Positions 12,930-17,825 of a stretch of 19,107 nucleotides of DNA are shown here, piece after piece; the stretch's first letter is position 1; the number at the start of each line of letters is the position of its first letter. The position numbers and the translations under genes were made by a program. Source of the DNA: Oscillospiraceae bacterium (GTDB lineage: Bacteria; Bacillota; Clostridia; Oscillospirales; Ruminococcaceae); NCBI GenBank assembly GCA_016295545.1, contig JAEDLA010000004.1, positions 1-19,107 on the forward strand. The letters are read 5' to 3'. Under the pieces are notes generated by a model. That model ran no database searches and was not told the origin of the DNA. It worked only from the letters and a program-made list of their open reading frames with translations.

Positions 12930-13890
12930 CATAAAAAACAAAAGGATACTGTTTATCGCCACTAAAAATTCCGACTACCTGAGAATAACTCAGGAGCTGA
13001 GAATACTCCGTGAAAACGGAAACAGCGTTACAGAGATAATCTCGCCAAAGAAAAGCTATCCTAAGAGGCTTTTGTATGTTTATCGCAGGCTTCTTACTGT
13101 GAAGATGTCCGATTACGACATGAGCTTCGTAGGCTTTGCACCTCAGCTGGTACTGCCCTTTTTCAGGAGAACGCTCAGGAAAAAGCCGGTCATTGCAGAC
13201 TTCTTTATCTCAATGTATGATACGCTGTGCTTTGACAGAAAGAAATTTCGTCCGGACAGCCTGCCCGGAAAGCTGCTGAAAAAAATCGATTGCAGGACGC
13301 TAAATCTTACTGACGGGGCAATATGCGACACTAAGGCTCACGGCAGGTACTTCTGCGAGGAATTTGGCTATGCGCCTGAGAAAATGGGTGTTCTGTATCT
13401 TGAAGCGGACAAAAGCATATACTATCCCCGTGAAGCACCTCAGAACAGTGAATTTACCGTGCTTTACTTCGGCAGCGTGCTTCCTTTGCAGGGAGTTTCA
13501 GTTATCCTTGAAGCAATAGAACTGCTGAAAAATGAAAAGGGACTTAAATTCGTTTTTATCGGACCGTTAGGTAAAAATAATGTCCGCAAAGGCGAAAATA
13601 TCACCGAGTATATCGACTGGCTGCCCCAGGAAAAGCTTGCGGAAAAAATCGCTCAGGCTGACCTTTGTCTTGCCGGGCATTTTGACGGCTCTATCATGAA
13701 AGCCAAAAGGACTATTCCAGGAAAGGCTTACATCTACAGTGCCATGAACAAGCCTATGATTCTCGGAGATAATGAAGCTGTACGTGAGCTTTACAGCGAG
13801 TCAGACGAGGGGATCTATTTCACGGAAATGGGTAATCCTCAGAAGCTTGCAGAGCTGATTCTGAGCATCAGAGATAAAAGGATAAAATAA
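12913..13890 (+). CDS. Glycosyltransferase, GT4-like (third)
   Basis: Probable GT-B glycosyltransferase of 325 residues from the ATG at 12913. An in-frame GTG at 12904 would add three residues; GGAG at 12897-12900 is too close to it and rather far from the ATG, so the start is uncertain. The donor domain (about 165-320) opens with TVLYFGSVLPLQG and contains FVFIGPLG; near the C-terminus TIPGKAYIYSAMNKPMIL matches the usual donor-binding segment with a Lys-Ala-Tyr turn. The classical EX7E pair is not clear, so it is a divergent member. The N-terminal domain begins KRILFIATKNSDY. It overlaps the GT2 gene by 17 bases and the following membrane gene by one base, so it is part of the same operon. 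Confidence 0.8.
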   Translation: MKSINDIKNKRILFIATKNSDYLRITQELRILRENGNSVTEIISPKKSYPKRLLYVYRRLLTVKMSDYDMSFVGFAPQLVLPFFRRTLRKKPVIADFFISMYDTLCFDRKKFRPDSLPGKLLKKIDCRTLNLTDGAICDTKAHGRYFCEEFGYAPEKMGVLYLEADKSIYYPREAPQNSEFTVLYFGSVLPLQGVSVILEAIELLKNEKGLKFVFIGPLGKNNVRKGENITEYIDWLPQEKLAEKIAQADLCLAGHFDGSIMKAKRTIPGKAYIYSAMNKPMILGDNEAVRELYSESDEGIYFTEMGNPQKLAELILSIRDKRIK

Positions 13891-14828
13891 TGAAGAAAAT
13901 AGCTAAAATTGCCGGTAATCTGCTGATGATTGCCGCACTTGTCTTTCTCATAAAGAAAATTATGGGCATGGACGCTGACTTTACACAGTTTGGCTCACCG
14001 AATGTTATTGCCGCTCTTGTGCTGAGCTTTATTGTACAGACTGCTGTTATCGTTATGGGAACCTTTCCCTGGCTTATGTTTACACAGGCGCTTTCCGGAA
14101 CGAAGATACCCTTTTCCGCAGCAATGCCTGTCTACACGAAGTCAAATGTCTTTAAGTATGTTCCCGGCAATGTTTTCCAGTATATAGGCAGAAATCAGCT
14201 TGCCGCCGATATGAATATAAGTCATGTTGACGTTGCCTGTGCCACTATTTTTGATGTGCTTTTCTGCGTTCTGTCTACGGGAATTATTTCCGTGCTGCTT
14301 CTTGGCGGTGAAATTGCCGGACTTTTAGGAAAATACGGAAAAAATCTGCTGATAATCGCAGCAGCGGCGGTGCTGATAATAACAGCAGGAATAATCGTTG
14401 TGCGGATGAAGTTTTCCCGGCAGGTCGGCGGCTATCTGTCACGGTACAGAAAGGCTTTTGAGCCTGGAAACCGGAATAAATTCATATCCGGAGCGTCCTA
14501 CTATCTGCTTCAGAATCTTGTATCGGCAATTTCCTATTTTGTGTCCCTTGCCCTTGTTTTCGGCGGAACAGCTGATTTCCCGGAGCTTATATCTCTTACG
14601 GGAGCTTTCATGTTCGCATGGATAATCGGCTTTGTTACGCCCGGAGCCCCCGGCGGTATCGGTATAAGAGAGTCGGTAATGCTTTTTGTCTGCGGAGATG
14701 AGTATGAATCAAAGGTACTGCTTTTCGTCCTCGTTATGAGGTTTGCCTCAATACTTGCTGACGTGGCAGCCTTTGTAATAGGCAGGATATATCTCGGAGC
14801 TGCCAGAAGAAAGCAGAATAATTTATAA
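13890..14828 (+). CDS. UPF0104/lysylphosphatidylglycerol synthase-TM-like flippase-family protein
   Basis: Integral membrane protein of 312 residues with about eight hydrophobic segments (near 9-27, 36-58, 108-130, 150-172, 200-225, 235-255, 270-295 among them). Two family motifs are seen: KYVPGNVFQYIGR (about 90-102) and TPGAPGGIGIRES (about 251-263), typical of UPF0104, AglD and the membrane half of MprF. Related proteins have been proposed to flip lipid-linked sugars or aminoacyl lipids; the function of this one is not shown. It is the last gene of the run, starts on the final base of the preceding stop, and is followed 8 bases later by a strong terminator. A role in moving the polyprenyl-phosphate sugar made by the GT2 enzyme is an inference. 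Confidence 0.85.
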   Translation: MKKIAKIAGNLLMIAALVFLIKKIMGMDADFTQFGSPNVIAALVLSFIVQTAVIVMGTFPWLMFTQALSGTKIPFSAAMPVYTKSNVFKYVPGNVFQYIGRNQLAADMNISHVDVACATIFDVLFCVLSTGIISVLLLGGEIAGLLGKYGKNLLIIAAAAVLIITAGIIVVRMKFSRQVGGYLSRYRKAFEPGNRNKFISGASYYLLQNLVSAISYFVSLALVFGGTADFPELISLTGAFMFAWIIGFVTPGAPGGIGIRESVMLFVCGDEYESKVLLFVLVMRFASILADVAAFVIGRIYLGAARRKQNNL

Positions 14829-14836
14829 AAATAAAA

Positions 14837-14867
14837 GGCTGATACATTTTTACACTGTGTATCAGCC
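14837..14867. terminator. Bidirectional rho-independent terminator
   Basis: GGCTGATACA (14837-14846) pairs perfectly with TGTATCAGCC (14858-14867), ten base pairs with an 11-base loop. On the plus strand ATATTTTAT follows and would end the glycan operon. On the minus strand TTTTATTTTTAT follows, a better T-run, and would end the trpE-fragment unit, whose stop codon lies only 5 bases before the stem. Confidence 0.9.
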
Positions 14868-14872
14868 ATATT

Positions 14873-15049
14873 TTATATTACAGATATCAAATTTTCTTTT
14901 GTGGTAATTATTAAGCGGCTATGACTGACCTTTTTCAGCACGGACAGTACGTTCAGGGGAGTGTGCATATCGGAGAAAAGCTCGGCGGCTATGGGTATCA
15001 TTTTGTATCTGCCGTTTTCCGAAAGCCTTACGGCTTCTTCATTTATCAT
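14873..15049 (-). pseudogene. trpE: N-terminal fragment of anthranilate synthase component I behind a Trp T-box
   Basis: This 58-codon reading frame starts at ATG 15049, 5 bases after GAGGAGGGA. Residues 1-42 resemble the N-terminus of TrpE: RYKMIPI (14-20), an acidic-Thr-Pro turn SDMHTPLNV (26-34) and a helix ending LKKVS (38-42). In full enzymes the next strand reads roughly LESxE...RYS; here it becomes RLIITTKENLISVI and stops. Normal TrpE has about 480-520 residues, so some 90 percent is missing. No frameshifted remainder is seen: 5 bases past the stop is a terminator. The Trp T-box just upstream supports the identity independently. It could be a dead remnant after deletion, or a small retained open frame; I favour a remnant. 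No trpG or other trp gene is in the window. Confidence 0.72.
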
Positions 15050-15089
15050 AAAAAATCCCTCCTCAGGAATTGTCCTGCGAGGGAAACAG

Positions 15090-15128
15090 AAAAGTCCCTG
15101 ACAAGACTGAATAAATCTTGTCAAGGAC
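15090..15128 (-). terminator. T-box-regulated intrinsic terminator
   Basis: GTCC-T-TGACAAGA and TCTTGTCA-G-GGAC form a long, nearly perfect stem, followed by TTTTCTGTTT. The left arm shares CCTTGA with the antiterminator, so the two structures exclude each other. Uncharged tRNA-Trp should favour readthrough into the trpE fragment. Confidence 0.92.
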
Positions 15129-15371
15129 CAATAAACTATAGTTATATCGGCGGTGCCACCTTGATTTGCAGAATTATCTGCCACTTAGCGAGATACCATC
15201 ATATCTCCGGAATCTGACGTGTGCCCGACGTCATGGAATACTCAGCCTAAGCCTTTGACCATGCCCTCAGCGGTCCATTTAACAGTACGTAACTCTCCGG
15301 GTTCTCAGCAATCCCGAATCTCTGTGCAGCCGTCCTCTGTTTTTATCTCCGCCTCAACGGTTTGAATTTAT
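15090..15371 (-). promoter_or_regulatory. T-box riboswitch, tryptophan-specific
   Basis: Complete tRNA-sensing leader. The predicted transcript begins near 15371. The distal Stem I arm reads AGAG-ATT-CGGG-loop-CCCG (about 15300-15325), with GCTGAGAA in the loop. The specifier is UGG (15275-15277) in the usual AAA-UGG-ACC setting, so it reads tRNA-Trp. Small stems follow (TGACGT/ACGTCA at 15233-15215, GAGATA/TATCTC, GCAGA/TCTGC). The T-box motif AAGGTGGCACCGCC lies at 15162-15149; its UGGC complements a GCCA tRNA end, agreeing with discriminator G73 of tRNA-Trp. TCAAGG (15164-15159) pairs with CCTTGA (15126-15121) to make the antiterminator and would block the terminator. Every element expected of a working T-box is present, although its gene is truncated. 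Confidence 0.92.
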
Positions 15372-15377
15372 GATGTT

Positions 15378-15406
15378 ATTATATTACCTGAATCTGAAAA
15401 AGTCAA
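15378..15406 (-). promoter_or_regulatory. Sigma-A promoter of the T-box unit
   Basis: On the minus strand TTGACT (15406-15401), a 17-base spacer and TATAAT (15383-15378) form an almost ideal promoter, with an AT-rich downstream edge. It starts only 38 bases after the metH stop codon, so the T-box unit has its own transcription independent of pheA-metH. Confidence 0.85.
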
Positions 15407-15443
15407 TAGGGAAAATCGAGTTCTGTTAATTGTTTACAAAAAA

Positions 15444-17825
15444 TTATTTTTCTCCATAGATTTCAGCAGCAATATCAACAGTTTCCTTAGCGTCCTTTGC
15501 GTAGAAGTCAGCGTTTATCTGTTTTGCGTAGGAAGCTGTAAGCACAGCTCCGCCAACAACTGTTTTACACTCCGGATATTTCTGATTCAGGAGAGCAATG
15601 GTATCAGCCATAGCGCCGAGAGTAGTAGTCATCAGTGCAGAAAGTCCCACCAGCTTCACCTGATGCTCAACAGCTGCACTGACGATAACCTCCTTGTCCA
15701 CGTCTCTGCCAAGGTCAATTACGGTGAAGCCGTAGCTTTCAAGGAGTACCTTTACAATATTTTTGCCTATGTCGTGAATGTCGCCCTTAACAGTAGCCAG
15801 AACCACTTTTCCCTTTGATACAGGGGATTTTCCCTCTGAACTGATTTTGCGTTTTATTACTTCAAAGCAAGCCTGCGCAGCTCCGGCAGTGAGAATAAGC
15901 TGGGGCAGGAAAATCTTTCCCTTTTCAAATTTATCTCCGGCTGCGTCAAGGGCAGGGATAAGATATTCATTGATAATAGCCATAGGCTCCTTGTCTGAAA
16001 GCATTTCCTCCGCAGCCTTAACTGCTTCGTTTTTCAGTCCGTTTTCCACACAGTAGCCAAGCTCCTTTGACGTATTCTGAGCAGCGGGAGCAGCTGTTTT
16101 TGCCGGAGCGGACTTGTCTCCGCCGTAAATGCTTACAAATTCCGTGCAGTTCTCATCAATTCCCGAAAGAAGCTTATATGCCCTTACAGCGCCGATAATC
16201 GACTCAACGTTGGGATTGATTATAGGCAGGTCAAGTCCCTTTTGCAGTGCCATAGTAAGGAAAGTACGGGTTATCATTTCCCTGTTGGGCAGACCGAATG
16301 ATATATTGGAAACGCCGAGAACGGTTTTCAGTCCAAGCTCAGTCTTGACACGGTGAAGTGCTTCGAGAGTTTCCGTTACGCCCTCCTGTTCGGCAGAGGC
16401 AGTAAGCGTCAGGCAGTCGATATAAACGTCCTCTCTGGGTATGCCAAGCTCAAGGGCACGATTGAGTATTTTTTCCGCAATGGCAAAGCGTCCCTCTGCG
16501 GTTTTAGGAATACCGCCCTCATCGAGAGTAAGTCCCACAACAGCTGCACCGTATCTTTTGACAAGGGGCAGTATAGTGCCGAGAGACTTTTCCTCACCGT
16601 TGACTGAATTTACAATGGGCTTGCCGTTGTAAACTCTCAGACCGGCTTCAAGAACCTCAGGAATAGTTGAATCAAGCTGAAGCGGAGTATCACAGATACC
16701 CTGAATTGCCTTGACGGCGGCAACCATCATTGCTTTTTCGTCGATTCCCGGCAGTCCCACATTGACATCAAGAATATCTGCTCCGGCGTGTATCTGCTCC
16801 ACTGCCTGAGAGAGAATATAGTCCATATCGTTGGCGAGGAGAGCTTCCTTGAACCGTTTTTTGCCTGTAGGATTGATTCTTTCGCCTATAACTTTCGGCT
16901 GAGAGATATCCACATAGCTGACAGCCGAGCATACACCGGCACGGGGCCTTATCTTTGTGTGAGCGTATTTGCTGTCCCACAGAGCGGCTTTCAGCGACTT
17001 GATATGCTCCGGAGTAGTGCCGCAGCAGCCGCCGAATATCTTTACTCCCATAATTGCAAGCTGAGCCGTGCTTGACGCAAATTCCTCAGGACCAACGGTG
17101 AAAAGATTAGTCACAGGGTCAGGCAGTCCGGCATTTGGCTTTGCAATGACAGGTAGCTTCGTGAGGGAGCATATCTTCTCCACCACAGGCATAAGCTCAT
17201 CAGGACCGAGAGAACAGTTTACTCCCACAGCGTCCGCACCCAGTCCCTCAACGACGGCAGTGAGACATTCCGGAGAAACACCGGTAAAGGTCCTGCCGTT
17301 TTCCTCAAAGGTCATGGTTACAAGCACCGGTTTTCCGGAGTTTTCCTTAGCCGCAAGGAGTGCAGCCTTTACCTCGTAAAGATCGGTCATAGTCTCTAAA
17401 ACGATAATATCCGCATCTTCTCCGGCAAGGATTATTTCCTTGTAGCAGTCGTAGGCTTCCTCGAATTTCAGTGTTCCGGAGGGTTCAAGCAGCTGACCGA
17501 GAGGACCTATATCCAGAGCCACAAGAGCCTTGTCTCCAACGGCATTCCTGGCAATTTTTATTGCGGCGGACACTACCTCATCAGCAGAGTGACCTGTTCC
17601 TGCAAGCTTGTATCTGTTTGCGCCGAATGTATTGGCATAGACAATGTCCGCACCGGCTTCGGCGTAGGCACGGTGGATATCAGCAATAGCCTCCGGAGCG
17701 GTAAGGTTAAGCAGCTCAGGAACGTGACCTGTATCAAGACCGGCTGACTGGATCATTGTGCCCATTCCGCCGTCAAGGAAGATAAATTCCTGCTGTTTAA
17801 GCATATCGTAAAAGTTTTTAGTCAT
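15444..17825 (-). CDS. metH: Cobalamin-dependent methionine synthase, short form without reactivation domain
   Basis: Transfers the methyl group of methyltetrahydrofolate via cobalamin to homocysteine. Domains in 793 residues: homocysteine-binding barrel (about 1-285) with LDGGMGTMIQ (17-26) and zinc ligands Cys204 and Cys267-Cys268 in GGCCGTTP; folate-binding barrel (about 308-565) with GERINPTGKKRFKEAL (314-329) and DVNVG (353-357); cobalamin cap helices (about 590-660); cobalamin domain (about 672-793) with DIHDIGKN (682-689), whose His684 is the lower ligand, GLSALMTTT (727-735) and VVGGAVL (756-762). E. coli MetH has about 1227 residues; the missing part is the C-terminal AdoMet-binding reactivation domain. 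Short forms are common in anaerobic Clostridia, where repair must come from a separate protein. AGGAG lies 6 bases before ATG. It follows pheA by 42 bases, so co-transcription is likely. Confidence 0.94.
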   Translation of the reverse strand: MTKNFYDMLKQQEFIFLDGGMGTMIQSAGLDTGHVPELLNLTAPEAIADIHRAYAEAGADIVYANTFGANRYKLAGTGHSADEVVSAAIKIARNAVGDKALVALDIGPLGQLLEPSGTLKFEEAYDCYKEIILAGEDADIIVLETMTDLYEVKAALLAAKENSGKPVLVTMTFEENGRTFTGVSPECLTAVVEGLGADAVGVNCSLGPDELMPVVEKICSLTKLPVIAKPNAGLPDPVTNLFTVGPEEFASSTAQLAIMGVKIFGGCCGTTPEHIKSLKAALWDSKYAHTKIRPRAGVCSAVSYVDISQPKVIGERINPTGKKRFKEALLANDMDYILSQAVEQIHAGADILDVNVGLPGIDEKAMMVAAVKAIQGICDTPLQLDSTIPEVLEAGLRVYNGKPIVNSVNGEEKSLGTILPLVKRYGAAVVGLTLDEGGIPKTAEGRFAIAEKILNRALELGIPREDVYIDCLTLTASAEQEGVTETLEALHRVKTELGLKTVLGVSNISFGLPNREMITRTFLTMALQKGLDLPIINPNVESIIGAVRAYKLLSGIDENCTEFVSIYGGDKSAPAKTAAPAAQNTSKELGYCVENGLKNEAVKAAEEMLSDKEPMAIINEYLIPALDAAGDKFEKGKIFLPQLILTAGAAQACFEVIKRKISSEGKSPVSKGKVVLATVKGDIHDIGKNIVKVLLESYGFTVIDLGRDVDKEVIVSAAVEHQVKLVGLSALMTTTLGAMADTIALLNQKYPECKTVVGGAVLTASYAKQINADFYAKDAKETVDIAAEIYGEK

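What the first reader, a model, noticed from the sequence alone, without database searches (positions are those of the whole stretch)
14873..15406. Orphan tryptophan T-box driving only a 58-codon trpE fragment
Promoter, UGG specifier, T-box motif matching tRNA-Trp G73, antiterminator, terminator, strong ribosome binding site, short frame and closing terminator are all intact, but the frame holds only about the first 42 residues of TrpE. A sensor that should decay once its operon is lost looks fully preserved. It may be a recent deletion scar, a decoy binding uncharged tRNA-Trp, a small regulatory peptide or RNA, or a unit that controls readthrough toward the glycan genes on the opposite strand.
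Basis: partly seen in the sequence, partly recalled or inferred. Interest (0 to 1): 0.72.

Follow-up and report, generated by a model that had tools for sequence, protein, structure and literature searches.

The report
Stray copy of a tryptophan-operon start
An intact-looking tryptophan sensor with only the first stretch of the trpE gene sits alone between two unrelated genes of a Ruminococcus-like bacterium; it is most likely a recently copied, misplaced start of the tryptophan operon that has not yet decayed, rather than a new kind of regulator.

Summary
A tryptophan T-box (Rfam RF00230, 69 bits, UGG specifier, antiterminator and terminator) drives a 58-codon frame, of which residues 4-43 are TrpE. 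The interpretation changes. In many Ruminococcus relatives the unit's two neighbours, metH and a membrane-protein gene, are direct convergent neighbours with no T-box between them (23 of 85 loci examined have the pair adjacent, one contig counted twice; 56 do not, 6 lack flank). Trp T-boxes sit elsewhere, mostly before full trpE. The unit is therefore most simply an inserted partial copy of an operon start, not the scar of an operon deleted in place. It looks preserved because it is young: residues 4-43 match one full-length TrpE (P0003) at 39 of 40 positions, against 20-31 for ten other TrpE and 26 for the nearest genome found. Its T-box scores like that genome's leader (68.5 bits). No such fragment was found in 125 genus genomes, so a conserved function is unlikely. 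A possible side effect: no other terminator-like site was found between metH and the T-box. The strain's genome is not held, so whether a full trp operon survives in it is unknown, and insertion of a whole operon followed by deletion is not excluded.

The parts
15378..15406 (-). promoter-like TTGACT-17-TATAAT
   Evidence: 11 of 12 positions; hexamers present in the five relatives aligned
15120..15366 (-). tryptophan T-box leader (RF00230)
   Evidence: 69.2 bits, E 7e-15; sequence profile of 20 genus trp T-boxes 191.4 bits
15275..15277 (-). UGG specifier codon
   Evidence: sequence; same codon in the five relatives aligned
15121..15164 (-). antiterminator with 7-nt UGGCACC bulge
   Evidence: fold, -12.0 kcal/mol
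15093..15129 (-). intrinsic terminator competing with the antiterminator
   Evidence: 16 pairs
15050..15084 (-). second hairpin covering the ribosome binding site, followed by six U
   Evidence: -17.5 kcal/mol; a similar hairpin in G083 (-21.4)
14873..15049 (-). 58-codon frame; residues 4-43 are the TrpE amino terminus, residues 44-58 not recognisable
14830..14874 (.). inverted repeat (82% complementary arms, 11-nt loop) with U-runs on both sides; probably the old terminator shared by the convergent neighbours (inference)
   Evidence: too long a loop for the scan
15444..17825 (-). metH-like gene (homocysteine methyltransferase, pterin- and B12-binding domains), neighbour on the unit's upstream side
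   Evidence: Pfam; synteny
13890..14828 (+). 312-aa membrane-protein gene at the end of the glycan cluster ('lpg' here, a label of mine), convergent neighbour
   Evidence: no Pfam match; synteny

Best explanation
The unit is a recent, lineage-specific partial copy of the start of a trp operon (promoter, tryptophan T-box leader and about the first 40 codons of trpE) that landed between the convergent genes metH and lpg. Shown: all T-box parts are present; the junction holds no T-box in the relatives that have it; the trpE piece is nearly identical to a full-length TrpE. Inferred: it still senses tRNA-Trp. With charged tRNA-Trp, transcription would stop near 15093; with uncharged tRNA-Trp it would run through the 58 codons to the inverted repeat at 14874-14830. 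No complete gene is controlled. Its one plausible local effect is on the 3' end of metH transcripts, for which no other terminator-like site was found before the T-box.
For: Of the 23 gaps none scores above 6.1 bits with a profile of 20 genus trp T-boxes, against 191.4 for the window. G083, the nearest genome found by MetH (83%), has its T-box-trpE on another contig, leading frames that I read as trpE, G, D, C, B and A. Recency: residues 4-43 are identical to P0003 at 39 of 40 positions, to ten other TrpE of the same search at 20-31, and to G083 at 26. Codon-position differences from G083 over 32 codons are 6:3:14, similar to working pairs such as G083-G042 at 7:7:17. The T-box scores 69.2 bits against 68.5 for G083 and 80.4-96.8 for the other 19 leaders tested. 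In 125 genus genomes 98 have a TrpE start (99 matches); all lie in frames of 488 codons or more except one of 258 at a contig start and one weak second match of 213 in a genome that also has a full one.
Against: No genome of the strain is held, so a parent operon in the same cell is not shown; P0003 may be another species and its DNA was not seen. G083, closest by MetH, does not have metH next to lpg, and 56 of 85 loci do not either, so the empty site is inferred from other relatives, G017 the nearest of them. No convincing target-site duplication or transposon end was found. The codon pattern over 32 codons cannot tell a recent copy from weak constraint. The T-box score is second lowest of 21.
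Confidence: 0.68

Rival explanations
1. A whole T-box-trp operon moved into the metH-lpg junction and was then deleted from about codon 43 of trpE to near the shared terminator, leaving a recent scar.
For: Trp operons seem to be exchanged in this clade: G083 and G017 share 86% MetH (G017 partial) but only 61% TrpE. The near-identity to P0003 allows a recent deletion as well.
Against: Needs two events. None of the 23 metH-lpg gaps examined holds a trp T-box, and they are at most 990 bp long. The sequence after codon 43 resembles no operon end seen: the trpA end of G083 was read by eye, and BLAST against all held loci gave only short A+T-rich matches.
Confidence: 0.2
2. The unit has a regulatory use: an RNA that binds uncharged tRNA-Trp, a small peptide made under tryptophan starvation, or a tryptophan-dependent 3' end for metH.
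For: The T-box parts are intact. The 58-aa cluster counts 3 member sequences on 9 contigs, though how independent these are is not told. The scan found no other terminator-like site between metH and the T-box (the scan misses long loops).
Against: No second fragment found in 125 genus genomes, and no other small protein among proteins of 0.55-1.75 times its length. The frame stops before the conserved HCF-LES stretch of TrpE.
Confidence: 0.08
3. Assembly artefact: a chimeric join put a trpE leader between metH and lpg.
For: No genome is held for the window, which may be a metagenome record.
Against: Both flanks belong together in relatives, the piece exactly fills their junction, it lacks 7 codons that P0003 has, and the 58-aa cluster counts 9 contigs.
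Confidence: 0.04

Closest known systems
Tryptophan T-box leader of trpE operons in Ruminococcus (Rfam RF00230)
   Same: Promoter, stem I with UGG specifier, T-box, antiterminator and terminator align with leaders of full trpE genes.
   Different: No complete gene follows; it sits between metH and lpg, where the relatives examined have no T-box.
[quoted passage not shown] passages found by term search were seen, not the whole text)
   Same: A T-box module copied to a new place, one of the four routes named in that paper's conclusion.
   Different: The paper speaks of insertion in front of a gene or operon of related function; here the copy carries a stub of its old gene and controls nothing complete.
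Trp T-box before trpBA, alone or as a second copy, in the same genus (G002, G018, G057, G061; G051, G055)
   Same: Trp T-box leaders separated from trpE.
   Different: Those lead complete trpB and trpA frames.

Membership tests
T-box leader (RF00230) | sequence-structure match to the family model | tested here: met
   69.2 bits, E 7e-15, full model 1-219; below the gathering score of 93, as are 13 of 20 trp leaders of relatives
T-box leader (RF00230) | specifier codon, T-box bulge, antiterminator and competing terminator | tested here: met
T-box leader (RF00230) | tRNA-dependent antitermination | not testable with these tools
   needs transcription assays
T-box-regulated trp operon | complete downstream tryptophan gene under the leader | tested here: not met
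   58-codon frame with one TrpE stretch (residues 4-43), then the inverted repeat and the convergent gene
duplicated operon-start fragment | site empty in relatives | tested here: met
   23 metH-lpg gaps without T-box; but 56 of 85 loci, G083 among them, do not have the two genes adjacent
duplicated operon-start fragment | parent copy in the same genome | not testable with these tools
   no genome held for the window; a near-identical full TrpE (P0003) exists in other data
conserved small regulatory gene | frame kept in diverged genomes without full trpE | tested here: not met
   no such short frame among 99 matches in 125 genomes; only its own cluster in the protein search

The most novel reading that the evidence does not exclude
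A free-standing tryptophan T-box acting beyond its own transcript: placed in the metH 3' region, it makes the 3' end of metH mRNA depend on tRNA-Trp charging, or its RNA titrates uncharged tRNA-Trp away from the real trp leaders.
Probability: 0.06. Interest if true: 0.65.

Novelty: new member of a known kind. Interest (0 to 1): 0.3.

Why it matters
It looks like an early stage, or a dead end, of a proposed route by which T-boxes spread: a complete sensor module copied, with a stub of its old gene, to a place where it controls nothing yet. It also shows why an intact-looking regulatory RNA is not by itself proof of use: its age must be judged, here from the attached coding piece.

Tried and rejected
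Rejected: an intact TrpE hidden by a sequencing error. Only 92 bases lie between codon 43 and the stop of the convergent gene, and the site is a short junction in relatives. Rejected: a plainly decayed T-box; its score and antiterminator fold match those of leaders before full trpE. In the 115-nt fold the window's minimum-energy structure holds the terminator; those of G083 and G103 keep the antiterminator instead, so that fold alone proves little.

Led nowhere: the source of the 15-residue tail, which gave only short A+T-rich matches. Target-site repeats at the edges: none convincing. Mobile-element cargo: no plasmid match; no relative of the frame in viral contigs; two unannotated phage-labelled records with T-box matches, one of which I read as T-box-trpEGD. 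Literature: led to the T-box evolution paper, of which passages were seen. The listings (no paper; 10 of 11,446 seen) show no title or abstract start on a free-standing T-box with a truncated gene; those papers were not opened.

The third protein search was not used. The 80 loci are the best 80 of 486. The 20 leaders are the best DNA matches, not a random sample. Gene names of operon frames (trpG, D, C, B, A, cysE and the like in relatives) are my reading except where a family search is cited.

Full report
What is there. On the minus strand, directly after a metH-like gene, lies a promoter-like pair TTGACT/TATAAT (15406-15378), then a T-box leader (15366-15120; RF00230, 69.2 bits, E 7e-15). 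The sequence gives a UGG specifier (15277-15275) and the T-box UGGC (15158-15155). The antiterminator folds with the usual 7-nt bulge at -12.0 kcal/mol; five relatives give -11.4 to -13.8. A 16-pair terminator follows (15129-15093), then a second hairpin over the ribosome binding site and a 58-codon frame ending at 14873. An inverted repeat with U-runs on both sides (14874-14830) separates this from the convergent gene 13890-14828, called 'lpg' here (my label; no Pfam match).

What the frame is. It has no Pfam match, but residues 4-43 align with TrpE of Ruminococcus relatives. The nearest genome found, G083, has a full TrpE whose start is 58% identical. A search aimed at the TrpE start gave 11 proteins at E 1e-8 or better among 25 candidates. 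One, P0003 (495 aa), is identical to residues 4-43 at 39 of 40 positions; the other ten (nine full length, P0010 partial) reach 20-31 of 40 and G083 26 of 40. P0003 has 7 more codons near the start. Differences from G083 by codon position are 6:3:14 over 32 codons, similar to pairs of full-length genes. So the piece was most likely part of a working trpE until recently.

Where it belongs. In 15 of 20 first relatives a TrpE was found. For 13 of the 15 a listed T-box match lies just upstream (a capped list); for the other two, G005 and G007, the unit's DNA matches just upstream. A DNA search with the unit gave a match at E 0.01 or better in 110 of 125 genus genomes, many of them weak. Of the 20 loci of its best matches, 19 have a T-box before a trpE frame and one (L200) before trpBA. 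G083 has its trp genes on contig C51 and metH on contig C41.

Why insertion. metH and lpg are direct convergent neighbours in 22 of 85 loci by script, with G017 added by hand; 56 are not adjacent and 6 have too little flank. Two of the 23 rows (L067 and L276) appear to be the same contig. Gaps run from 27 to 990 bp. A profile of 20 genus trp T-boxes scores 191.4 bits on the window's gap and at most 6.1 bits on the other 23. In G001, G002, G017 and G083 hairpins that look like terminators follow metH closely (my reading). In the window the only terminator-like minus-strand site found in 14780-15500 is the T-box terminator itself (that scan misses long loops), and the inverted repeat beside lpg may be the old shared terminator (inference). 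Against this, G083, the closest by MetH (83%), does not have metH beside lpg.

Why it looks intact. The window's T-box scores like the leader of G083 (69.2 against 68.5 bits), although both lie below the 19 other leaders tested (80.4-96.8 bits). With a near-identical TrpE start in P0003, youth is enough to explain this. A conserved function is not needed and not supported: of 125 genomes 98 have a TrpE start, 99 matches in all; these lie in frames of 488 codons or more except one of 258 at a contig start and one weak second match of 213 in a genome that also has a full one. The small-protein search found only the fragment's own cluster, with 3 member sequences on 9 contigs; this speaks against a single assembly error, though how independent the contigs are is not told.

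Background of movement. TrpE and MetH disagree: G083 and G017 share 86% MetH (G017 partial) but 61% TrpE, while G017 and G020 share 83% TrpE. Trp operons of two types thus seem to have been exchanged in this clade, and the fragment is of the P0003/G083 type. Some genomes have a trp T-box directly before trpBA (G002, G018, G057, G061; no TrpE start found in these four drafts), and two have both arrangements (G051, G055).

Verdict. The unit is most likely a recent, partial, misplaced copy of a trp operon start. Whole-operon insertion followed by deletion remains possible (about 0.2). A function as decoy, peptide or conditional metH terminator is possible but unsupported (about 0.08). A parent operon in the same cell was not shown, because no genome is held for the window.

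Compared with what is known. It meets the sequence and anatomical tests for a T-box leader but not the test for a regulated operon, since no complete gene follows. [quoted passage not shown] passages seen). The copy here differs in carrying a stub of its old gene and controlling nothing complete.

Noticed in passing
L168, L169, L313, L314 (genomes G018, G002, G057, G061): A trp T-box, or in L313 and L314 a DNA match to one, stands directly before trpB-trpA with no TrpE start found in the genome; such strains may depend on indole or another precursor from outside. Draft genomes, so missing contigs are possible.
   Followed up: partly
L308 and L309 (G051); L187 and L310 (G055): Two trp T-boxes in one genome, one before trpE and one before trpBA; the two of G051 are about 68% identical over 241 bases.
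   Followed up: partly
L182, L116, L125 and P0003: TrpE and MetH relationships disagree (G083-G017: MetH 86%, TrpE 61%), which suggests exchange of trp operons between lineages.
   Followed up: partly
window 15084-15050 and L182: A hairpin covers the ribosome binding site and is followed by a U-run just before the start codon, in the window and in G083; it could add a second layer of control.
   Followed up: no
L175 and L177: T-boxes with an apparent UGG specifier stand before genes that look like a second TrpB-type enzyme (name recalled, not tested).
   Followed up: no
L321 (MT835865.1): A record labelled bacteriophage holds a T-box match, a 496-aa trpE-like frame and trpG- and trpD-like frames; it looks like bacterial chromosome.
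   Followed up: partly
L046: A record titled Alistipes senegalensis carries a metH at 74% identity to the window's, like the Ruminococcus records beside it, so the label is probably wrong.
   Followed up: no
metH-lpg gaps of L014, L015, L019, L026, L030, L033, L040, L273: The junction holds different small frames in different genomes, as if it often accepts insertions.
   Followed up: partly
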